NCBI GenBank assembly: GCA_019242465.1
Contig: JAFAVL010000027.1
Span: 1 to 8,437 of the forward strand
DNA: 8,437 nt
Source: Chroococcidiopsidaceae cyanobacterium CP_BM_RX_35
Lineage (GTDB): Bacteria > Cyanobacteriota > Cyanobacteriia > Cyanobacteriales > Chroococcidiopsidaceae
Direction: 5' to 3'
The notes under the pieces are model-generated. The model ran no database searches. It was not told the DNA's origin and saw only the letters and a program-made list of their open reading frames with translations. Below, piece by piece: positions 1-8,437 of this stretch (positions within the stretch are counted from its first letter, which is position 1; each line of letters starts with the position of its first letter). Made by a program: the position numbers and the translations under genes.

Positions 1-95
1 CACCAAGCCTTGCAGCTCTGGTGGGGGCTTGAAACCCACGGAAATTGCGAATTGCGAATTGTTTTGGGTAGCGTGTCATCAAAAGGTAATGCCTC
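1..95. other. Intergenic end of window, downstream of the terpene operon
   Basis: I see no credible gene in this stretch. It lies just downstream of the HAD hydrolase stop. It contains a short inverted repeat (GTGGG at 21-25 and CCCAC at 35-39, 9-nt loop) and a heptamer tandem repeat at 43-61. On the minus strand the hairpin has no T-tract after it, so it is at best a weak 3' end for the operon. The 64-residue plus-strand reading frame starting at 29 overlaps the hydrolase on the opposite strand, matches no family I know, and is not called. Confidence 0.6.
43..61. repeat. Heptamer tandem repeat AATTGCG, about 2.7 copies
   Basis: Units are at 43-49, 50-56 and a partial unit at 57-61. The repeat resembles the short tandemly repeated heptamers common between genes of filamentous and other large-genome cyanobacteria. 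It lies 34 nt beyond the hydrolase stop codon. Whether it has a function is unknown. Confidence 0.75.
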
Positions 96-755
96 CTATT
101 GCTTCTGAGCCAGTATTGTCGGTAGAGCTGAGAGATCGCGCACAATCCCTTGGGGTAATGCGTGATTCTCAATGTGTCGATCTACTAGGTAAGCATGTAT
201 CCCCAATGCCAGGGCTCCTTTGACACAAGGGATTTCATCATCAAACAATAAGCATTCGCTAGGGTTGACTCTTAAGGCATTCGTGACGCTAAGGTAGGAC
301 GCAGGTTCGGGTTTAGCGGCACCGATTGCCATCGCCGCGCAGGCAACATCCACAAACTCAGCTAGTCCAGCCGCAAGCAGAGAGGCATCGAGGCTAGCTA
401 GTGAGAAGTTAGAGAGCACTCCGACAAGTAAACCCCGCTGGCGAGATTCTATCAAAGCGGGTTTGGCATCTGGAAATGGGCGGACGATGCTAGTGTAATC
501 GAAGCGTAAGAGCTCTGATCGCACTGTGGCAGCAACTGCCAAATCATCACTCAGCCAATTCCAGAAGCCGTGCCAGAAGCTCTCCTCTTCGGCGACGCTA
601 CGCGGGAAACCCACAGTCTTACCCCACTGTTGCCAGCGTTGGAGAAGCTCATCGATTTTGAGCGGTAATAGGGGCTGGAAAAAGGTAGCAGCCTTCTCCA
701 TATCAAAACTCGTGAGTACACCATCGCGATCGAATATAACAGCACGGATTGGCAT
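96..755 (-). CDS. HAD-superfamily hydrolase, probable phosphatase of the diterpene operon
   Basis: This 219-residue protein has all four HAD motifs: motif I DRDGVLT with the nucleophile Asp9 and Asp11, motif II Ser115-Asn116 (LSNFS), motif III Lys148 in AKPEP, and motif IV Asp172-Asp173 (FDDE). A helical cap lies between motifs I and II, the layout of small cytosolic phosphatases and phosphoglucomutase-like HADs. The ATG at 755 sits six residues before motif I, so the start is sound. It begins 9 nt after the synthase stop with no clear ribosome site, suggesting coupled translation. The context suggests dephosphorylation of a prenyl phosphate or a by-product, but the substrate cannot be read from the sequence. 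M. tuberculosis Rv3376, beside its tuberculosinol genes, is also annotated as a HAD protein, as far as I recall. Residues about 47-58 may derive from a repeat element. Confidence 0.9.
   Translation of the reverse strand: MPIRAVIFDRDGVLTSFDMEKAATFFQPLLPLKIDELLQRWQQWGKTVGFPRSVAEEESFWHGFWNWLSDDLAVAATVRSELLRFDYTSIVRPFPDAKPALIESRQRGLLVGVLSNFSLASLDASLLAAGLAEFVDVACAAMAIGAAKPEPASYLSVTNALRVNPSECLLFDDEIPCVKGALALGIHAYLVDRHIENHALPQGIVRDLSALPTILAQKQ
583..614. repeat. Possible repeat-derived segment inside the HAD gene
   Basis: The stretch around cgacgctacgcgggaaaccc looks like the GC-rich repeats widely scattered in cyanobacterial genomes. It shares the core GGGAAACCC with the hairpin cluster in rpoN (its minus strand). 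It is translated as VGFPRSVAEE within the cap domain, keeping frame. This is recognition by eye from a short core only. Confidence 0.4.
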
Positions 756-764
756 AGTTGGCGG

Positions 765-1628
765 TTAAGTTGGGGGATCGATTGGTGCTGGATACCAGAA
801 GGGACCAAGGTGGGTACCCAACCCAATTGTTGGACCGTGTTCCCAAGCGGCGCGATGTAAAAGTGCCTCCTCAGCTCTGCCAGTTTTATCTTGCCGCCAA
901 GTGGGACGGAGGTAGGCGTAGTCGTAGAGTATGGTTCGCAATTCGCGTTCGGTCAGACTATAGCCAGGTCGCTGTGTCCAATAGCACTGGATCTCTTCGT
1001 ATAACAAAGGCGGTAGGTGGTCGAGAGCAACCAAGGGTTTACCAAAACTGAGCAGTAGTTTAGCAGGTGGAATATCAGCTCCGAAAAGAGCGCGTACTGC
1101 CTCCGCTTTTGTACAGGCACCGTTGGCAAATGCCTTACCAATCCAGGACCAGAGATTGTCATAGTCTAGTGTAGTGAGAAACCAGAGGTTAGGTCCGGTG
1201 GCAGCGCTAGTTGCCTGCTCTAGAGTAGCGGCTATGTCACTCAGTTCTGAAATGGAATTGCCAGCAACAATTAGCCTAACTCGCCAGTTGGCAGCTCGGT
1301 AGAAGTCGAGGGACTCAGAGCCAGCCAAGCCCCATTTCATCCAATGAAGAACCCGGTCGCGATACAGACTGCGTTCAGCAAAAATCTGGGGACGCCCTGC
1401 TGGTGCAATTAGATGCTGGACTCCAAAATGGAAAATCAGTTCCCAAGACCTTAGCATATGGGGATGTGACGAACGAGGATATTCTTCATTTATGGGAATA
1501 CCCGCTAAAGCAGCAGCACGGCGAGTGCCACCTGTCGCATAGATTATGGTGGTAGGCACGACTGGCTCCATCTCCTTTATCGGAGCAGCAAGAAACTCCT
1601 CTAAATTGGGGCATGAGTCTACAGTCAT
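765..1628 (-). CDS. Rv3378c-like diterpene synthase (cis-prenyltransferase fold)
   Basis: This 287-residue protein should act on the bicyclic diterpenyl diphosphate made by the upstream cyclase, removing diphosphate and adding water or another acceptor. The family link rests on remembered alignment to M. tuberculosis Rv3378c. An N-terminal EFL..P is shared. GGTRR (33-37) lines up with DGTRR, whose arginines bind diphosphate. Tyr50 keeps the exact spacing of Tyr51. Later come LDFYRAANWRVRLI and, near the C-terminus, LRTILYDYAYLR (230-241) against LRRILYDHIYLR. The length is close to that of Rv3378c (about 296). Rv3378c makes tuberculosinol and tuberculosinyladenosine, and a Herpetosiphon relative makes kolavelool. 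The oddity is Gly33 in place of catalytic Asp34. The ATG has a strong ribosome site (GAGGAG, 8 nt away) and overlaps the cyclase stop as ATGA. The product is not predictable from sequence. Confidence 0.85.
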   Translation of the reverse strand: MTVDSCPNLEEFLAAPIKEMEPVVPTTIIYATGGTRRAAALAGIPINEEYPRSSHPHMLRSWELIFHFGVQHLIAPAGRPQIFAERSLYRDRVLHWMKWGLAGSESLDFYRAANWRVRLIVAGNSISELSDIAATLEQATSAATGPNLWFLTTLDYDNLWSWIGKAFANGACTKAEAVRALFGADIPPAKLLLSFGKPLVALDHLPPLLYEEIQCYWTQRPGYSLTERELRTILYDYAYLRPTWRQDKTGRAEEALLHRAAWEHGPTIGLGTHLGPFWYPAPIDPPT

Positions 1629-3139
1629 TGAGAATTCTCCTCAAGAGCGAGTGCTAGCATAGCACTTAACTCGAAAGCGCGATCAATACGGGACGGACGA
1701 TACAACTCCTTAGCTATCCAGTACTTGTCCTCACCCGGATTGAAGGGACGATAATTGAGTAGCAGCCATTGATAAGCTTTCCGCAAAGTATCTAGGACAT
1801 CCTGAGTAACAAGGAATCCGCCGTCTCGCAGCGTGCGTAGTGTGAGAACACCATAGACCGTCTCCGCAGTTGTTGATTTATCATGCATCCCCCATCCTCC
1901 ATCTGCATGTTGATATGCAAGCACTGCGTCAACTGCTGATTTCACCCCTGGGATGTGTCCAGAATGTGTTAGCGCCAGCACTACATGCAATGTAGTGTAA
2001 AGCCAGGAGCTATGCCATTTATCAGCTAGCCATCGCCCATCAGGGCATTGACGCTCAACCAGAAATTTCTGTGGTCGAGCGACCTTCCTCCCAGAGATCG
2101 CTAGCGCATGAGTAGCGCGAGCAGTGACAGAGAGGGAGGGCTGAAGTTCCTCGGAGTAGGCAAAGAAGCAGCCATCATTTTCGAAATGTTCTAAGATTGC
2201 ATGACTGACCTGGTGTCCGGTAGCACAAAGTACAGCTATACCTGCGGCAGTATCGTCCCCATCAGGCATAAAAAAGTCGCTCATACCAAAACCTCTAGGT
2301 CTTAATGCATGTGCTAAATCACTCACCTGTAACCGCACTAGGTCTTGTAGTTGAGGATGCGTCAGAAGTCCAGTAATTAGGAGAATGTATAAGACAAACG
2401 TTTGCTCAAACCGATTGATTGGCCACACTGTTGGCACAACCCCTGGTATATCTTCGCCAGTTGCTGCTGCCGCCTGCAATAGGTAGTACCGTGCAACCTC
2501 ACGAACATCTGCCAAGTCAGTACGCCTAGCTGCTGCGTGTAGCCAGGCCGCCGTTGCAGCAGGGCTATGCCCAACTCCGCCTGAGGCATCAATTAGCGCG
2601 GGGTCAGGATCTGTTCCCCATGCCTCCCAGGAGTGAGCAGCTGTTGTGCCCGCGCTATGCTGCGTTCGGGTAATCAGCGAGCGGCGATGCTTCCCTAATG
2701 CTACAAGAGTTGCATAAGGCTCTTGCGGCAATCCCAACCCTGGCATCACTGATGCATCGAGTAGCCAGGGCAGGAGTAACTCTACACCGACTGGCAAATT
2801 ATCGGGTAGCGGTTGCCTCCACTGACCCATCTGCCGCTGAAGGAAGGTCAGACCCGCTCGCGCAGCGTTACGTGTTGCCATGCGGTTGCCGTAGGTGTAC
2901 AGTGCTAGCACTGACGCCAGTGTGGGGACATCGCGGGCGAGCGGTGCAGTGGGATTACCCCACCCACCATCAGCCTGTTGTTGGCTCAACAGCCAGTCCA
3001 CGGCAGGCCAAACCCCCTGCTGGGGTGGATAGAAGCGTAGTACTTGAGCGGTATCGTAGACTGAGGGGCTTATTAAGCCGCCATTTTTACCCAGGTTGGC
3101 GATTAGGTAACGGAGATCGGTCAGGAGAATGTCGATCAT
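1625..3139 (-). CDS. Class II diterpene cyclase (Rv3377c / copalyl-diphosphate-synthase-like)
   Basis: The enzyme should cyclise geranylgeranyl diphosphate by protonation, keeping the diphosphate, to give a labdane-, halimadane- or clerodane-type product. The catalytic DXDD motif is intact (DGDDTA, about 640 nt from the 3' end). Squalene-hopene-cyclase-like repeats bracket it: QQADGGWG near the N-terminus, QCPDGRW followed by DKWHSSWLYTT, and QHADGGWG. YDTAQV matches YDTAWV of Rv3377c, and WIAKELY matches its WIAKTLY near the C-terminus. No class I DDXXD domain is present, so a partner is needed, and it follows directly with a 4-nt overlap. The frame stays open to a GTG at 3298 (557 aa). I prefer the ATG at 3139 (504 aa) because it matches the 501 aa of Rv3377c, but no start has a good ribosome site; ATGs at 3148, 3235 and 3265 are alternatives. 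The skeleton made is unknown. Confidence 0.9.
   Translation of the reverse strand: MIDILLTDLRYLIANLGKNGGLISPSVYDTAQVLRFYPPQQGVWPAVDWLLSQQQADGGWGNPTAPLARDVPTLASVLALYTYGNRMATRNAARAGLTFLQRQMGQWRQPLPDNLPVGVELLLPWLLDASVMPGLGLPQEPYATLVALGKHRRSLITRTQHSAGTTAAHSWEAWGTDPDPALIDASGGVGHSPAATAAWLHAAARRTDLADVREVARYYLLQAAAATGEDIPGVVPTVWPINRFEQTFVLYILLITGLLTHPQLQDLVRLQVSDLAHALRPRGFGMSDFFMPDGDDTAAGIAVLCATGHQVSHAILEHFENDGCFFAYSEELQPSLSVTARATHALAISGRKVARPQKFLVERQCPDGRWLADKWHSSWLYTTLHVVLALTHSGHIPGVKSAVDAVLAYQHADGGWGMHDKSTTAETVYGVLTLRTLRDGGFLVTQDVLDTLRKAYQWLLLNYRPFNPGEDKYWIAKELYRPSRIDRAFELSAMLALALEENSQ
1637..1642 (-). promoter_or_regulatory. Strong Shine-Dalgarno site GAGGAG for the diterpene synthase
   Basis: GAGGAG on the minus strand ends 8 nt before the ATG at 1628. 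It lies inside the last codons of the cyclase gene and supports both the chosen start and coupled expression of the two enzymes. It is the clearest ribosome site in the operon. Confidence 0.8.
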
Positions 3140-3426
3140 GTAACTCATCCACTTGAAGAGAAATGCAGTGACATTAGCAGTGATGGGCAGACTCAAAGCA
3201 GTGTAGATTTTAGGATAGAGTGCTTCATAGCTCATCCAAGTAATCTGTATCAATAGTGACTTCATGAACTGGAAATAATGCTGTGATTGAACAGGCACTT
3301 ATCTAAATGCGCATGTTGTTCTTAAGGTGAGAGGATAGCAAAAATTCCTTTAGGAGGAATAGCCTTTTTTTAGGAAATACACCCATATTTATTGAAAATC
3401 AAAATAAATTATTTTGAGTTTAAGCC
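3140..3426. promoter_or_regulatory. Divergent control region between terpene operon and GGDEF/EAL gene
   Basis: About 290 nt separate the preferred cyclase start from the GGDEF/EAL start, or 128 nt if the GTG at 3298 is used. Both transcription units must be started from here. The part from about 3300 to 3426 is AT-rich. I see no convincing -35/-10 pair and no -24/-12 sigma-54 promoter. The only distinct structure is the inverted repeat at 3344-3360. Confidence 0.5.
3344..3360. promoter_or_regulatory. Inverted repeat ATTCCT-5-AGGAAT in the divergent promoter region
   Basis: A perfect 6-bp inverted repeat with a 5-nt spacer (TTAGG) lies 67 nt before the GGDEF/EAL start. Four nt later, on the plus strand, comes a run of seven T, so it could form a weak hairpin-plus-T structure in a leader RNA. 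Its place between two divergent genes equally fits an operator. Neither role can be settled from the sequence. Confidence 0.4.
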
Positions 3427-5781
3427 ATGAGTTCTAATTCTATTGAATTGGTTATTGGTCATGAAAAATCCAGCAATTTTCTGAATAAAGACCTAAATAC
3501 ATATCGCATATTTTGTGTGATTGGTGCGATTTTAATTCCGGGATTTTGGCTATCTCACAAATTAATTAATCCAGACGTTGTTGACTTCTTATTAGCAAGA
3601 TTATTATTTTCTTTTTTGTTCATCTCTATTTTGATTGCTTCTTATATAAGTAACTATATCAAAAATAACATTATCTATTTTCTCGAGATTTTACATTATG
3701 CTGTAACTATTTGGATTATATATCTTAATTTTCTGAATCATTTTTCTGATCATTCTGTGGCTCTGGTGGTAATTACTTTTGGTGTCATAATTATGGGGCT
3801 AAAAAGACGTGTCCATCTAATAGCCTATCCTTTAATCGTATTATTTCTGACTAGTTTAGCCTTTTTTTTGGTCTCCAGCCCCCAAGTAAATGGAGGCTTA
3901 TTCATAAGTAATCTAGCTACTGTTAGTATAATATCCTATATTGTTTCAGATTCTAGATTGAAGATCCAAGAAGAAATTACTGTTAGGGAAGAATTAATGA
4001 CGACTATATTTGACGAGTCAGCAGATGCATTGTTTTTAGTTCATAATATTAATCAAAAAATAATAAACTGCAATTCCCGTGCTACATCTGTATTTGAAGC
4101 AAAAGAAAAAAGCATGTTGATTGGAATTGAGATAAACACCTTAATAAATTCTGGACTAACTAAGGATATAAGTTTTAATATCAGAAATAAGATCAAGGAA
4201 TATGGCGTTTTTGCTAGCGTATTAGAATATGTAAATAAGAAGGGTCAAACAATATGGGGTGATACCATTATTAAAGAGATCAAGATATTCAATGAAACAA
4301 TTCTTCTCGTTCGAATTTCAGATATCACAGAGCGCAAGCAGGCAGAGGAGGCTCTACAACAGGCTAAAGATGAGTTAGAAAGACGGGTTGAGGAACGAAC
4401 AGCCGAACTATCACAATCTAATTTGCTTCTGAAACAGGAGATCGGTGATCGCCAGCGGGCAGAAGAGCAATTAACTTATGGTGCTTTTCACGATGCGCTA
4501 ACTGGACTGCCAAACCGAGCCTTATTTGTGGAGCGCCTGAGGCAGGCGGTTGAGCTGAAAAAATGGTATGAGGGCTATTTATTTGCTGTACTCTTCCTAG
4601 ATCTTGACCGCTTCAAAGTTGTCAATGACAGCCTCGGGCATATGGCTGGAGATCAACTTCTACTGGCGATCGCCAGTAGAATCAAGGCGTGCCTACGTGC
4701 CGAAGATATAGTCGCCCGTATTGGAGGGGACGAGTTCACAATTCTGCTGGAGGGTATCCAAGATGTTAGCGAAGCAAAAAGCGTTGCCAACCGGATTCAA
4801 GAGCAACTGAAGTTGCCTTTCATCCTGAGTGGAAATGAGGTATTTACCAGTGCGAGCATTGGAATCGCCCTCAGTGTGACAGATTATGACCGACCAGAAC
4901 AGATCTTGCGCGACGCTGATATGGCAATGTACAAAGCTAAGATGCGTGGCAAGGCACGCCATGAAGTATTTGACATCACCATGCATTCTTCCGCCATAGC
5001 TCGCTTACAGGTGGAAACCGACTTGCGGCGGGCCATCGAGCGTCAGGAGTTTCGGCTTCACTACCAGCCTATTGTTTCGCTAGATAGCGGTACAATCAAC
5101 GGGTTCGAGGCTCTTGTACGCTGGCAACATCCAGAACGCGGTCTTGTTTCCCCGGCGGAGTTCATCCCAATGGCAGAAGAAACCGGACTGATCGTTCCCC
5201 TTGGCTGGTGGGTTATCCACGAGGCGTGCCATCAAATGCATGTATGGCAAGCACAATTTCTCTCAGACGCTCCTTTATCGATCAGCATAAATATTTCCGG
5301 CAGACAATTTTCACAACTCGACTTAAGCGATCGAATAGAACAGATTTTGCAAGAGTTTAGCCTCGATCCTCGCACTTTAAAATTGGAACTCACAGAAAGT
5401 GCCATTGTGGAAAATGTCGAATCTGCAAACTTAATGCTGGCACAACTGCGAAAGCTAGGTATTCAGTTGTGTATGGACGACTTCGGTACTGGTTATTCAT
5501 CGTTAAGTTATCTACACCGCTTTCCTATAGATATGTTGAAGATTGACCGCTCCTTCGTTAGCAGAATGAGCCTTGATAATGAGAATTCGGAGATTGTCCG
5601 AACGATAGTGACACTAGCTCACAATTTGGGCATGAATATGACTGCCGAGGGGGTCGAAACAGCTGAGCAACTAGCTTTACTCAAGGAACTGAAGTGTGAA
5701 TATGGGCAAGGATACTTCTTTTCCAAACCGATAAACAGCGAAGCCGCAACAGCTTTGATTCCGAAGTTGGGAGTCGGATAA
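3427..5781 (+). CDS. Membrane sensor with PAS, GGDEF and EAL domains (cyclic-di-GMP turnover)
   Basis: This 784-residue protein makes or breaks down the messenger cyclic di-GMP at the inner membrane. Residues 26-175 form about six hydrophobic segments. A PAS-like domain spans about 190-300 and ends in ITERKQAEEAL; a coiled coil covers 303-348. The GGDEF domain (about 350-510) has intact GGDEF at 433-437, with an inhibitory I-site RAED (424-427) exactly five residues before it. The EAL domain (about 530-780) has EAL at 561-563, Asn622, ELTES at 654-658, DDFGTG at 684-689, KID at 705-707 and EGVET at 741-745. Both domains therefore look catalytically competent, and the membrane/PAS part probably decides which activity wins. 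No strong ribosome site precedes the ATG. The first ~890 nt are far more AT-rich than the rest, suggesting domain fusion. No link to the terpene genes is evident. Confidence 0.95.
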   Translation: MSSNSIELVIGHEKSSNFLNKDLNTYRIFCVIGAILIPGFWLSHKLINPDVVDFLLARLLFSFLFISILIASYISNYIKNNIIYFLEILHYAVTIWIIYLNFLNHFSDHSVALVVITFGVIIMGLKRRVHLIAYPLIVLFLTSLAFFLVSSPQVNGGLFISNLATVSIISYIVSDSRLKIQEEITVREELMTTIFDESADALFLVHNINQKIINCNSRATSVFEAKEKSMLIGIEINTLINSGLTKDISFNIRNKIKEYGVFASVLEYVNKKGQTIWGDTIIKEIKIFNETILLVRISDITERKQAEEALQQAKDELERRVEERTAELSQSNLLLKQEIGDRQRAEEQLTYGAFHDALTGLPNRALFVERLRQAVELKKWYEGYLFAVLFLDLDRFKVVNDSLGHMAGDQLLLAIASRIKACLRAEDIVARIGGDEFTILLEGIQDVSEAKSVANRIQEQLKLPFILSGNEVFTSASIGIALSVTDYDRPEQILRDADMAMYKAKMRGKARHEVFDITMHSSAIARLQVETDLRRAIERQEFRLHYQPIVSLDSGTINGFEALVRWQHPERGLVSPAEFIPMAEETGLIVPLGWWVIHEACHQMHVWQAQFLSDAPLSISINISGRQFSQLDLSDRIEQILQEFSLDPRTLKLELTESAIVENVESANLMLAQLRKLGIQLCMDDFGTGYSSLSYLHRFPIDMLKIDRSFVSRMSLDNENSEIVRTIVTLAHNLGMNMTAEGVETAEQLALLKELKCEYGQGYFFSKPINSEAATALIPKLGVG
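4658..4681. repeat. 24-bp perfect palindrome centred on a HIP1 octamer
   Basis: The left arm TTCTACTGGCGA is followed directly by its exact reverse complement, with GCGATCGC (4666-4673) at the centre. It lies in the GGDEF coding sequence, where it encodes LLLAIASRI. HIP1 is a highly over-represented cyanobacterial octamer, but the perfect extension to 24 bp is beyond the usual GGCGATCGCC. Confidence 0.85.
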
Positions 5782-5782
5782 T

Positions 5783-5830
5783 AAAAAGCCCTTGGGAGTC
5801 TTTCCGTGTTTCGACCCCAAGAGCTTCTTT
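5783..5830. terminator. Bidirectional rho-independent terminator between convergent genes
   Basis: The stem GCCCTTGGG (5788-5796) pairs with CCCAAGAGC (5816-5824) with one mismatch across a 19-nt loop. On the minus strand it is followed by TTTTTATTAT, a good T-tract for ending the activator-rpoN transcript. On the plus strand it is followed by TTCTTTGAATT, right after the GGDEF/EAL stop. It therefore probably serves both converging units. Confidence 0.75.
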
Positions 5831-5892
5831 GAATTACTCCTCACACTAACTAAAGTCTACAGCTTCCTTCCCAGAAGAATGATTGATTCTAG

Positions 5893-5913
5893 TGACACTT
5901 CTAGCACCGTCAC
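5893..5913. repeat. Short inverted repeat just downstream of rpoN
   Basis: GTGAC at 5893-5897 pairs with GTCAC at 5909-5913 across an 11-nt loop. It lies 14 nt beyond the rpoN stop. It has no T-tract and is weak, so it may only help protect the 3' end of the message. Confidence 0.3.
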
Positions 5914-5926
5914 AAGAATCGACCTA

Positions 5927-7426
5927 TCACTTGCGGCTATGAGCAGGATCTAAACCAGCTATTTTGCGGTACTTAGCAACTGTTCGTCTGGCTATGGGTA
6001 GACCAAACCTCAGCTTTAAAAGCTGAGCTAACTGTTCATCAGTGTAAGGAGCTATAGGGGATTCTTCCTGAATCAGTTGTACCAGCAGTTGTTGCACCTG
6101 TTGTGATGTCCGTCCTCCCACTCGTACTGGGACACACAGCGAATTGAGTGGCAAAATGCGGCTAGATTGATCGCAAATCAGGAGATAGCGTCCCCTGACA
6201 ATTCGACTCACTGTAGCGTTAGAAAGCCCTACCGCTTGAGCCACAAGTTGCTGGGGGGTTGGCACTAACTCTAAGTGATCGCGGCTGCTCAAAAAAGCTT
6301 GCTGGCGCTCGACTAGAAATTGACCAACTTTGAGAATATTTTCCTGCCACTGCTTTAAGGCAGTTAGCAAGCTTTGTGCCTTTTGAAGGAGAGATGATAG
6401 CCTTTGAGTATCCTGATTCTGCCTATCCCTTGTTGGCAAAAGCTCAATTGCTTCTTGGTCAAGACAGAAGCGCTGCTCAACTTCATAGACCAGAGACACC
6501 TGCCAAACAGCCGAGGAAAGCCGCTCTGCCTTAAGGTCGGGGGTAACAATGGGAGCGTGACTGTACCCAAAGTTTCTAGCGGGTCGGGGTTCTAGAGCTT
6601 GGATTTGACGGATTGCGCCTAACAAAGCCTCCTCATCTAAATTGGGCTTGCTCAAAGCAGCAGCCGGAGCCTCCTCCGGAGCCAGTCGCGTGGGCGGGTT
6701 TCCCACGCCAGTCCGCTCAACGGAGGGAACCTCCGCACGCGGCTGGCTCGACTTGAGCGAACTGGCGTGCTGACCTTTGAGTGGCACTTCTACAAGCCGC
6801 TGTTCGCGCAGCGTTTGCAACAACCACTCACGACTTTGCTTTGCCTCTAGAGAACTACCAGTACAATTTGCTAGCTGCTGTAAATAGTCTCTAACCAGAA
6901 GAGCAGGGAGACTTTGAGCTGGCTCTTTGAGCTGCAATAGCAGGCATTCTCGTAAGGAGCGAGCTCCTATCCCTGGAGGGTCTAGATTTTGGAGTAGAGG
7001 CACAATAGTTTCTAGTTCCTTTGGGCTCCAAGGACTACCATTTGCCCAAGTTTGTGCATCCGTTTCTAGATAACCTGCATTTGAGAGCCATTGGGTGAGA
7101 TAAAGCAAGGCATCGCGCTGGGCGAGAGGCAGCGAGAGGGCTGAAATTTGACCGGACAAATGTTCTTGGAGACTAAGACCTTGAGCTGCCGGAGTGTACC
7201 AATTAGGTAGGATGTCTGCTAGCAGGGTTTCGCGACTTCCTGACCAGTCAGATGAACCACTTTTCTCAACTATGAACGGGTTGTTCCTGGCTTCTGCTTG
7301 GAGGTAGCCCACAACCCGTTTGTGATCCCAAGGTAGCAGGCGCACAAGCTGCCGCAGAGTCGGATAGAGAATTGTTTGTGTCTCTAAGCGTGTTTCTAGA
7401 TACGCGCCCGTTACTATAGATTCCAT
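5927..7426 (-). CDS. rpoN: RNA polymerase sigma-54 factor
   Basis: The 499-residue protein directs RNA polymerase to -24/-12 promoters, which open only with an ATP-using activator. Region I (about 8-54) is the expected Leu/Gln-rich activator-response segment, with LETRLETQTILYPTLRQL and ending ARNNPFIVEK. The core-binding domain (about 80-290) has GLSLQEHL, LDPPGIGARSLREC and IQALEPRPARNFG. The DNA-binding part has a helix-turn-helix (VAQAVGLSNATVSRIVRGRYL, 395-415) and the diagnostic RpoN box ARRTVAKYRK (479-488). All functional blocks are present, so it should be active. About 45 residues (roughly 215-261) are a repeat-like insertion in the core-binding domain. The ATG overlaps the activator stop by 13 nt, so the two are probably co-translated. 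Sigma-54 is missing from the model cyanobacteria, which makes acquisition by transfer or rare retention likely. Confidence 0.95.
   Translation of the reverse strand: MESIVTGAYLETRLETQTILYPTLRQLVRLLPWDHKRVVGYLQAEARNNPFIVEKSGSSDWSGSRETLLADILPNWYTPAAQGLSLQEHLSGQISALSLPLAQRDALLYLTQWLSNAGYLETDAQTWANGSPWSPKELETIVPLLQNLDPPGIGARSLRECLLLQLKEPAQSLPALLVRDYLQQLANCTGSSLEAKQSREWLLQTLREQRLVEVPLKGQHASSLKSSQPRAEVPSVERTGVGNPPTRLAPEEAPAAALSKPNLDEEALLGAIRQIQALEPRPARNFGYSHAPIVTPDLKAERLSSAVWQVSLVYEVEQRFCLDQEAIELLPTRDRQNQDTQRLSSLLQKAQSLLTALKQWQENILKVGQFLVERQQAFLSSRDHLELVPTPQQLVAQAVGLSNATVSRIVRGRYLLICDQSSRILPLNSLCVPVRVGGRTSQQVQQLLVQLIQEESPIAPYTDEQLAQLLKLRFGLPIARRTVAKYRKIAGLDPAHSRK
6664..6770. repeat. Hairpin-rich palindromic element inserted in frame in rpoN
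   Basis: Four inverted repeats follow one another: CCGGAG/CTCCGG (6664-6679), GCGTGGG/CCCACGC with 7-nt loop (6688-6708), CGGAGG/CCTCCG with 3-nt loop (6721-6735), and GCACGC (6735-6740) with GCGTGC (6765-6770). The stretch is much richer in GC than its surroundings and encodes a Pro/Ala/Arg/Ser-rich, low-complexity segment (about residues 219-255). It resembles repetitive palindromes dispersed in cyanobacterial genomes. Family membership is by eye only. Confidence 0.7.
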
Positions 7427-8437
7427 TGTCGCCGCTTCTGCTCAAAACTTTTGTCATCTAGCCCTAAAGCTTTGTGAGGCTCTTGAGGATAAAGGATCAA
7501 GGCTTGGCGAATGAGGGTTTGTTCCAATTGAGCTATAGCTCGTTCTAAGTTCAGGTCAGCGTGCTTCTGCTGTTTCATGGTAAAAGCTGCGCTGACTGTA
7601 TCAGACCACTGTTCTTGACTGAAGACGATATGTTCAGCAAGTATTGTTCTCCCACCAGATAGGACTGCCGCTCGCTCTAAGGTATTTTGTAACTCCCGCA
7701 CATTCCCTGGCCATGAATAACCTTTAAGTTTTAAGAGCGCTCCTTCAGTGATTGCTAGAGTGCTAAGGTTACGCTGTAGGGCAATACAACTTAAAAAACG
7801 TTGGGCTAGTGGTTCCAAGTCTTCACTATGATCGCGCAAGGGTGGCAGTTCAATCCGTAGAACGTTGAAACGATAATAGAGGTCTTCTCGAAACTGATTG
7901 AGGCGGACCATTTGCTCTAAATTCCGATTAGTAGCAGCCAAAACTCGCACATCTACTGTTTTTGTCTGGTTACTCCCCAACCGCTCGAAAGATCTATCTT
8001 GCAAGACTCGTAACAATTTGCCCTGAATCATCGGGCTTAATTCTCCAACTTCATCTAGAAAAATCGTGCCACCATTAGCTTGCTCAAAGCGTCCAATCCG
8101 CAAGTTGTTGGCTCCAGTGAAAGCTCCTTTTTCATGACCAAATAACTCTGCCTCCAGCAAATGCTCTGGTAGGGCAGCACAATTGACTTTCACTAAGGGT
8201 CCTCGGCTGCGGGGGCTAGCATTGTGGAGGGTGGAGGCGACTAATTCTTTGCCAGTACCAGATTCTCCTAAAATTAAAACTGTGGTGTTTCCTTGTGCTA
8301 CCCGACCTATAAGTTTAAACACCTCTGCCATCGCTGGCGATCGCCCCAATAGTTCTTCTTGTTGCGTCAGCTGTGTAGGGTTTGCTCCTACCTGATAGAC
8401 TGATGCTTGATGATGGGCTAAAGCCTTACGGGTGAGT
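7414..8437 (-). CDS. Sigma-54-dependent transcription activator (AAA+ enhancer-binding protein), N-terminus beyond window
   Basis: The protein uses ATP hydrolysis to remodel sigma-54 polymerase. About 340 residues are visible; the frame stays open to the window edge (…ALAHHQASVYQVG…), so the start and any receiver or sensor domain are outside. A TTG at 8349 is internal, since QQEEL immediately before it continues the usual linker. Numbered from that codon: Walker A GESGTGKE (28-35), the sigma-54 contact loop GAFTGA (75-80), Walker B TIFLDE (95-100), sensor I ATN (139-141), the arginine-finger segment FREDLYYRFNV (153-163) and sensor II WPGNVREL (213-220). The C-terminal Fis-type DNA-binding helix pair is recognisable (ALGLDDKSFEQKRRQW) but divergent and short. 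Its stop lies 13 nt inside rpoN, so it is probably the dedicated partner of that sigma factor. The input signal is unknown. Confidence 0.95.
   Translation of the reverse strand, partial: LTRKALAHHQASVYQVGANPTQLTQQEELLGRSPAMAEVFKLIGRVAQGNTTVLILGESGTGKELVASTLHNASPRSRGPLVKVNCAALPEHLLEAELFGHEKGAFTGANNLRIGRFEQANGGTIFLDEVGELSPMIQGKLLRVLQDRSFERLGSNQTKTVDVRVLAATNRNLEQMVRLNQFREDLYYRFNVLRIELPPLRDHSEDLEPLAQRFLSCIALQRNLSTLAITEGALLKLKGYSWPGNVRELQNTLERAAVLSGGRTILAEHIVFSQEQWSDTVSAAFTMKQQKHADLNLERAIAQLEQTLIRQALILYPQEPHKALGLDDKSFEQKRRQWNL
8337..8344. other. HIP1 octamer GCGATCGC
   Basis: This is the second HIP1 site of the window, in the extended form GGCGATCGCC (8336-8345), within the activator coding sequence (encoding GRSPA). 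It supports the cyanobacterial assignment. Confidence 0.85.

What the first reader, a model, noticed from the sequence alone, without database searches (positions are those of the whole stretch)
96..3139. A cyanobacterial counterpart of the tuberculosinol locus (Rv3377c/Rv3378c plus HAD)
The sequence shows a DXDD class II cyclase overlapping by 4 nt a gene with GGTRR and LRTILYDYAYLR motifs, which align gap-free in key places with remembered Rv3378c. A HAD hydrolase follows 9 nt later. In M. tuberculosis the same two enzymes make tuberculosinol and 1-tuberculosinyladenosine, and a HAD gene (Rv3376) sits beside them, as I recall. A related pair in Herpetosiphon makes kolavelool. I know of no described product of such an operon in cyanobacteria, so the pathway and its diterpenoid may be new. 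That the HAD enzyme belongs to the pathway is inference.
Basis: partly seen in the sequence, partly recalled or inferred. Interest (0 to 1): 0.9.

Follow-up and report, generated by a model that had tools for sequence, protein, structure and literature searches.

The report
Cyanobacterial kolavelool-type diterpene operon
A cyanobacterium carries a three-gene operon for building a two-ringed diterpene, whose closest studied relative is the kolavelool pathway of the bacterium Herpetosiphon rather than the tuberculosis one, and related operons often carry a nucleoside-cutting enzyme that hints the molecule may be joined to a purine base.

Summary

The cyclase is 52% and the synthase 46% identical to the Herpetosiphon aurantiacus pair, reported to make kolavelool. 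Far closer relatives of Rv3378c and Rv3377c sit in Chloroflexota (E 6e-85 and 2e-150), across a fully supported split from the window. The locus is kolavelool-type and nests among Chloroflexota sequences.

New here: related operons repeatedly carry a nucleoside hydrolase. It lies within 6 kb of the synthase in 9 of 22 genomes (0.07 expected), in all 7 of 30 loci that have the HAD, and in the nearest cyanobacterium. The window ends before that place. This suggests, without proving, a diterpenyl-purine product. Against it: Herpetosiphon lacks the hydrolase, and 11 of 18 cyanobacterial-type hydrolases lack the first motif Asp. Product and acceptor are untested.

The parts
1625..3298 (-). Class II (DXDD) diterpene cyclase, 557 aa in the longest frame; start more probably ATG 3148 or 3139
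   Evidence: 69% to cyanobacterial L001 and 52% to the Herpetosiphon aurantiacus cyclase
2252..2263 (-). DGDD, the catalytic acid motif of class II cyclases
   Evidence: sequence; aligned
1700..1720 (-). WIAKELY: Ala and Tyr at the columns of Rv3377c A475 and Y479 (Asp at the first of these goes with labdanes in PMC9814783)
   Evidence: alignment, PMC9814783 passages
765..1628 (-). cis-prenyltransferase-fold class I type diterpene synthase, 287 aa, kolavelool-synthase/Rv3378c superfamily
1518..1532 (-). GGTRR motif: both Arg invariant in 62 of 62 aligned sequences; first Gly stands where Rv3378c has Asp
906..941 (-). LRTILYDYAYLR motif; R231, Y235, D236, R241 invariant in 62 of 62
1625..1628 (-). 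ATGA stop/start overlap of cyclase and synthase (translational coupling likely)
96..755 (-). HAD-superfamily phosphatase, 219 aa
   Evidence: PF00702 4.8e-18; motifs present; 333 homologues
717..731 (-). HAD motif I DRDGV (DxD, the phosphatase form; recalled)
   Evidence: sequence
3427..5781 (+). context: membrane PAS-GGDEF-EAL protein, divergent neighbour, conserved at the same place in L001
   Evidence: 80% identical

Best explanation
A cyanobacterial operon for a bicyclic diterpenoid of the kolavelool type. Step 1 (inferred from family and motifs): the DXDD cyclase protonates GGPP and makes a clerodane or halimane diphosphate, not a labdane (no Asp at the switch position). Step 2 (inferred from fold and 46% identity to the kolavelool synthase): the cis-prenyltransferase-fold enzyme ionises that diphosphate and lets an acceptor capture the cation, giving an alcohol or an N-linked adduct. 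Step 3 (inferred): the HAD phosphatase works on a phosphorylated precursor, acceptor or by-product. The genes are co-transcribed (inferred from the 4-nt overlap and 9-nt gap) and came to cyanobacteria from Chloroflexota or a related source (inferred from the trees). Related operons add a nucleoside hydrolase, usually with a likely signal peptide, so a nucleoside probably enters the pathway; whether as acceptor is open.
Against: No product known. The switch residue is Ala here and Asn in the Herpetosiphon cyclase, so the skeleton may differ. The Gly in place of Rv3378c's Asp could mean altered chemistry, though the Herpetosiphon enzyme has Gly there too and is reported active (PMC9440906). Six of 31 loci show no cyclase near the synthase (some are cut by contig ends). 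Six loci pair this synthase type with a cyclase from the other side of the tree (L002, L003, L004, L008, L011, L027), so synthase similarity alone does not fix the product.
Confidence: 0.75

Rival explanations
1. Diterpenyl-purine pathway: the synthase joins the diterpene to adenosine or AMP as Rv3378c does, the HAD removes a 5'-phosphate, and an exported nucleoside hydrolase trims ribose to give a diterpenyl-adenine.
For: Nucleoside hydrolase (PF01156) in 10 of 30 kolavelool-type loci and in 7 of 7 that carry the HAD, against 3 of 23 without it (Fisher p 5.9e-5; loci are related, so not independent). 9 of 22 genomes have it within 6 kb of the synthase, 0.066 expected. Five-gene runs: hydrolase-cyclase-HAD-synthase-STAS in L059, hydrolase-cyclase-HAD-STAS-synthase in L062. 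In the genome of L006, whose synthase lies on another contig, the hydrolase directly follows the cyclase (51 nt). In cyanobacterium L001 it follows the HAD, convergent. Contig lengths shared between synthase and hydrolase hits: 12, jitter control mean 1.1, maximum 6; 7 of these are among the 22 nearest synthase clusters. Rv3378c makes 1-tuberculosinyladenosine, and tuberculosinyladenine is abundant in mycobacteria (PMC11476799 passages).
Against: The Herpetosiphon branch lacks the hydrolase and has a methyltransferase instead (O-methylkolavelool is its named product). 20 of 30 loci show no hydrolase, some with short flanks. 11 of 18 cyanobacterial-type hydrolases, L001's included, have Asn for the first Asp of the DxDxxxDD motif and may be inactive. 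The L009 hydrolase is a short form without a leader. Window bases 1-83 do not match the L001 hydrolase region. Shared synthase-HAD contig lengths (6) do not exceed the control's maximum (7; 119 of 120 HAD lengths typed).
Confidence: 0.35
2. Plain kolavelool-like alcohol: water captures the cation; hydrolase and HAD serve general nucleotide salvage or dispose of by-products.
For: Nearest characterised enzyme is a kolavelool synthase; PMC8131916 passage lists it and tuberculosinol synthase as hydrolytic cis-prenyltransferase-family enzymes.
Against: Does not explain the tight, multi-phylum linkage of a nucleoside hydrolase. Rv3378c was itself named for the alcohol before its adenosine product was found (recalled; product stated in PMC11476799).
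Confidence: 0.45
3. A true tuberculosinol/tuberculosinyladenosine locus: halimane product identical to tuberculosinyl diphosphate.
For: Same fold and two-gene order; Ala and Tyr at the A475/Y479 columns as in Rv3377c.
Against: Only 1.5e-9 to Rv3378c and 1.4e-26 to Rv3377c, whereas L067 reaches 6e-85 and 1.7e-150; wrong side of both trees.
Confidence: 0.1

Closest known systems
Herpetosiphon aurantiacus kolavelool pair (Haur_2145 cyclase; kolavelool synthase, recalled as Haur_2146)
   Same: 52% and 46% identity, same gene order with 4-nt overlap in L029 (8424-9995, 9992-10861), same clades, Gly-Gly-x-Arg-Arg motif
   Different: Herpetosiphon has a methyltransferase, histidine kinase and response regulators and no HAD or nucleoside hydrolase of these types; Asn instead of Ala at the cyclase switch
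M. tuberculosis Rv3377c/Rv3378c (with Rv3376)
   Same: cis-prenyltransferase-fold synthase beside a class II cyclase, with a HAD gene nearby; Rv3378c is the top PDB match
   Different: Weak sequence similarity, other side of the family split, Gly for the DGTRR Asp; Rv3376 is oppositely transcribed and accessory (PMC11476799 passages)
Sorangiadenosine cluster of myxobacteria (PMC7321100 passages)
   Same: terpene cyclase plus a transferase proposed to join a terpene to adenosine like Rv3378c
   Different: sesquiterpene, class I cyclase Sora9, 518-aa transferase; not compared by sequence here

Membership tests
Kolavelool-type synthase/cyclase pair (Herpetosiphon type) | Synthase and cyclase each group with the Herpetosiphon aurantiacus enzymes apart from the Rv3378c/Rv3377c-like group | tested here: met
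   100/100 and 100/99 branches; 46% and 52%. Rv3378c and Rv3377c are not in the trees; L067 stands for them
Kolavelool-type synthase/cyclase pair (Herpetosiphon type) | Makes kolavenyl diphosphate and then kolavelool | not testable with these tools
   needs an enzyme assay; switch residue differs
Rv3377c/Rv3378c tuberculosinol locus | Closest relationship to Rv3378c and Rv3377c within the superfamily | tested here: not met
   versus 49, 50
Rv3377c/Rv3378c tuberculosinol locus | Asp in the DGTRR motif | tested here: not met
   alignment: Gly. The close group has Asn in 12 of 12 rows, so the Asp is not a firm marker
Rv3377c/Rv3378c tuberculosinol locus | HAD partner orthologous to Rv3376 | not tested
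   Rv3376 was not fetched; only the presence of a HAD was seen
cis-prenyltransferase fold | Fold match over the whole domain | tested here: met
Class II diterpene cyclases | DXDD motif and similarity to GGPP-using class II cyclases over squalene/hopene cyclases | tested here: met
   Pfam assigns only the broad SQHop domain
HAD phosphatases | Motif I DxD, motif III Lys, motif IV Asp-Asp | tested here: met
   VIFDRDGV, AAKPE, FDDE; PF00702

The most novel reading that the evidence does not exclude
The operon belongs to a widespread, undescribed kind of bacterial diterpenyl-purine pathway in Chloroflexota and cyanobacteria: cyclase and synthase make a clerodanyl- or halimanyl-adenosine (or its 5'-phosphate), the HAD dephosphorylates it, and an exported nucleoside hydrolase trims the ribose outside the cell to give a diterpenyl-adenine resembling sponge agelasines or lipophilic cytokinins. 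It would suggest an enzyme for the unexplained origin of tuberculosinyladenine and make the relatives of a tuberculosis lipid testable in harmless bacteria.
Probability: 0.3. Interest if true: 0.85.

Novelty: new variant of a known kind. Interest (0 to 1): 0.6.

Why it matters
I found no described product of a kolavelool-type pair in cyanobacteria (listings, with passages of some papers). The linked nucleoside hydrolase and HAD turn a vague question, what this synthase superfamily really transfers its diterpene to outside mycobacteria, into a bench test with a small operon. PMC11476799 reports that a first search for orthologues of the tuberculosis genes outside mycobacteria failed (passage); close relatives do exist in Chloroflexota, although PMC9814783 had already reported Rv3378c equivalents in 44% of Rv3377c-type clusters.

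Tried and rejected
Window's own genome: none held. Plasmids: no megablast hit for window 1-5900 and no tblastn hit for the synthase, so no support for a plasmid carrier in that collection. PADLOC: no hit for the three proteins. Hydrolase in the window: the plus-strand ORF 2-223 matches the C-terminus of the L001 hydrolase ORF (52% over 50 aa), but that part is antisense to the HAD, and window bases 1-83 do not align to L001, so I do not claim a hydrolase in the window. Sensor idea: many Chloroflexota loci have a membrane histidine kinase, STAS or GAF protein with a related N-terminal domain (11 of 15 group pairs at hhalign probability 89 or more, four at 1.6 to 72, two control groups at most 0.6); the window's GGDEF-EAL protein does not match it (at most 1.4; two-sequence profile), and the domain is common (7-16 matches in each of 10 Chloroflexota genomes), so I dropped it as an explanation of the window. 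A HAD-profile hit on the L067 synthase (E 1e-5) was taken as chance. Pfam and NCBIfam give no family for the synthase. Terminator and promoter scan of 3100-3500 found none.

Rows dropped: the Fisher test used 30 loci; left out were the window, Herpetosiphon duplicates L010, L013, L030, L060, L064, the duplicate L063, and the Rv3378c-like group. Trees left out those same duplicates and L066. In one search the motif pattern missed 3 of 37 kolavelool-type rows (L026, L028, L060); of 34, 30 had Gly and 4 Ser. In one search the HAD motif pattern missed motifs I and III in L014 and L059 and motif III in L009.

Papers: PMC11476799 abstract, passages and Discussion; PMC9814783, PMC9440906, PMC8131916 and PMC7321100 passages; the 2015 Herpetosiphon paper (Nakano) not seen, cited through those. 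Searches (0 papers with 'nucleoside hydrolase' and 'tuberculosinyladenosine'; 10 with 'nucleoside hydrolase' and 'diterpene'; titles and abstract starts only, none about a terpene gene cluster) bound the claim that the linkage is not in print.
Full report
What is there. Three minus-strand genes, 1625-3298, 765-1628 and 96-755, are packed with a 4-nt overlap and a 9-nt gap. Pfam gives squalene-hopene-type domains for the first, nothing for the second and HAD for the third; NCBIfam gives no equivalog above cut-off for these three. All three are under purifying selection against cyanobacterial locus L001 (dN/dS 0.25, 0.19, 0.12).

Where it comes from. L001, a Chroococcidiopsidaceae MAG, is about 80% identical in DNA over window 84-5785, and its contig carries photosystem II genes (PF00421, PF00124). 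The window holds a Cyano-1 RNA at 5780-5850. So the locus is cyanobacterial. It is rare there: 1 of 388 Cyanobacteriales genomes searched, namely L001's own, against 23 of 400 Chloroflexota genomes (both scored only the six best candidates per genome).

Which branch. The Herpetosiphon aurantiacus neighbours in L029 are 46% (synthase) and 52% (cyclase) identical to the window. A second group, loci L065 and L067-L078 from unnamed Chloroflexota genomes, is the Rv3378c-like one: L067's synthase hits Rv3378c at 6e-85 and its cyclase hits Rv3377c at 1.7e-150, with NGTRR in 12 of 12 readable rows. The maximum-likelihood trees split the two groups at 100/100 (synthase, 43 against 12 rows) and 100/99 (cyclase, 18 against 18), and the window is on the Herpetosiphon side in both. 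Within it the window sits with L001 and database proteins, mostly of unstated source, in an 8-row clade (99/91) inside a 21-row set with Chloroflexota (100/93); roots are midpoint only. This favours transfer from Chloroflexota or an unsampled relative.

Chemistry. The cyclase has DGDD and, at the columns of Rv3377c A475 and Y479, Ala and Tyr. PMC9814783 (passages) links Asp at that switch to labdanes and non-acidic residues to clerodanes or halimanes. The Herpetosiphon cyclase has Asn there, so the exact skeleton is open. Six loci (L002, L003, L004, L008, L011, L027) pair a kolavelool-type synthase with a cyclase from the other side of the tree: the two enzymes are exchangeable in evolution.

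The unexpected partner. Clustering the neighbours of 31 loci gave a nucleoside hydrolase family in 8, and two further fetched loci, L059 and L062, have it too. In L059 the order is hydrolase-cyclase-HAD-synthase-STAS on one strand; in L062 it is hydrolase-cyclase-HAD-STAS-synthase; L014 and L028 run hydrolase-cyclase-synthase-HAD. In 22 genomes with 34 such hydrolases in all, 9 have one within 6 kb of a synthase where 0.066 is expected (nominal P 1e-18, genomes treated as independent, which they are not). HAD and hydrolase go together: 7 of 7 HAD loci against 3 of 23 others (p 5.9e-5, same caveat, and some flanks are short). In L006's genome, where the synthase is on another contig, the cyclase is followed 51 nt later by the hydrolase.

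In the cyanobacterial relatives. A search with the L001 hydrolase returned a group of proteins at 58-78% identity, two with a PEP-CTERM domain. Seven of the 22 nearest synthase clusters share an exact longest-contig length with a hydrolase hit (12 shared in all; jitter control mean 1.1, maximum 6). This is indirect evidence of linkage. Synthase-HAD coincidences (6) did not beat the control's maximum (7), while HAD-hydrolase coincidences (9) did (6). In 11 of 18 of these hydrolases, L001's included, the first Asp of DxDxxxDD is Asn; 7 keep Asp. Some may therefore not hydrolyse.

How it may work. The core steps, GGPP to a clerodane or halimane diphosphate and then ionisation and capture, follow from family knowledge and are inferred. 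The acceptor is the open question. Water is what the nearest studied enzyme is credited with. A nucleoside would explain the hydrolase and the HAD, would parallel Rv3378c, and could explain how a free terpenyl-adenine arises; PMC11476799 reports abundant tuberculosinyladenine and could not tell how such variants form (Discussion). I give water 0.45, purine 0.35.

The HAD. It has complete phosphatase motifs and 333 homologues (120 listed; those named are Chloroflexota). In mycobacteria Rv3376 is a phosphatase whose loss lowers but does not abolish the product (PMC11476799 passage). In the 12 close Rv3378c-like loci, L067-L078, no neighbouring HAD of this type was found, so the similar arrangement may have arisen twice.

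Verdict. A real, coherent operon; new to cyanobacteria as far as my searches show; a new variant of the known kolavelool-type pathway, made more interesting by the repeated nucleoside hydrolase.

Noticed in passing
L067-L078 (unnamed Chloroflexota genomes): Close relatives of Rv3377c/Rv3378c, usually in the order synthase-cyclase-membrane histidine kinase (kinase-type hit in 12 of 12 loci, cyclase in 11); NGTRR instead of DGTRR.
   Followed up: partly
L069, L070, L071: Rv3378c-like loci with another, leaderless type of nucleoside hydrolase about 5-7 kb from the synthase, a PfkB kinase in L070, and ICMT-like and FemAB-like genes beside the synthase in L069 and L070.
   Followed up: partly
L001:11404-12945 and P0241-P0258: Nucleoside hydrolases with Asn for the first motif Asp in 11 of 18, some with PEP-CTERM ends: perhaps binding proteins rather than enzymes.
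   Followed up: no
window 5927-7426 and 7414-8436, minus strand: A sigma-54 factor and a sigma-54 activator (NifA/NtrC-like) in a cyanobacterium. Cyanobacteria are usually said to lack sigma-54 (recalled); the DNA-binding domain is over cut-off in 5 of 243 Cyanobacteriales genomes, including L001's.
   Followed up: partly
window 5780-5850, minus strand: Cyano-1 RNA (RF01701, 55.2 bits).
   Followed up: no
Chloroflexota loci, e.g. L029:5586-7892, L004:11214-12584, L015:10855-11844: A common 5-6-helix membrane sensor domain fused to histidine kinase, GAF or STAS parts beside the diterpene genes; no Pfam hit covered it in the proteins scanned.
   Followed up: partly
L012 and L062 (one genome, G462): Two different kolavelool-type operons in one genome: one Herpetosiphon-like with methyltransferase and kinase, one with hydrolase, HAD and STAS.
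   Followed up: no
L066:124-1191: Hit with DGNRR, probably an ordinary cis-prenyltransferase rather than a member of this family.
   Followed up: no
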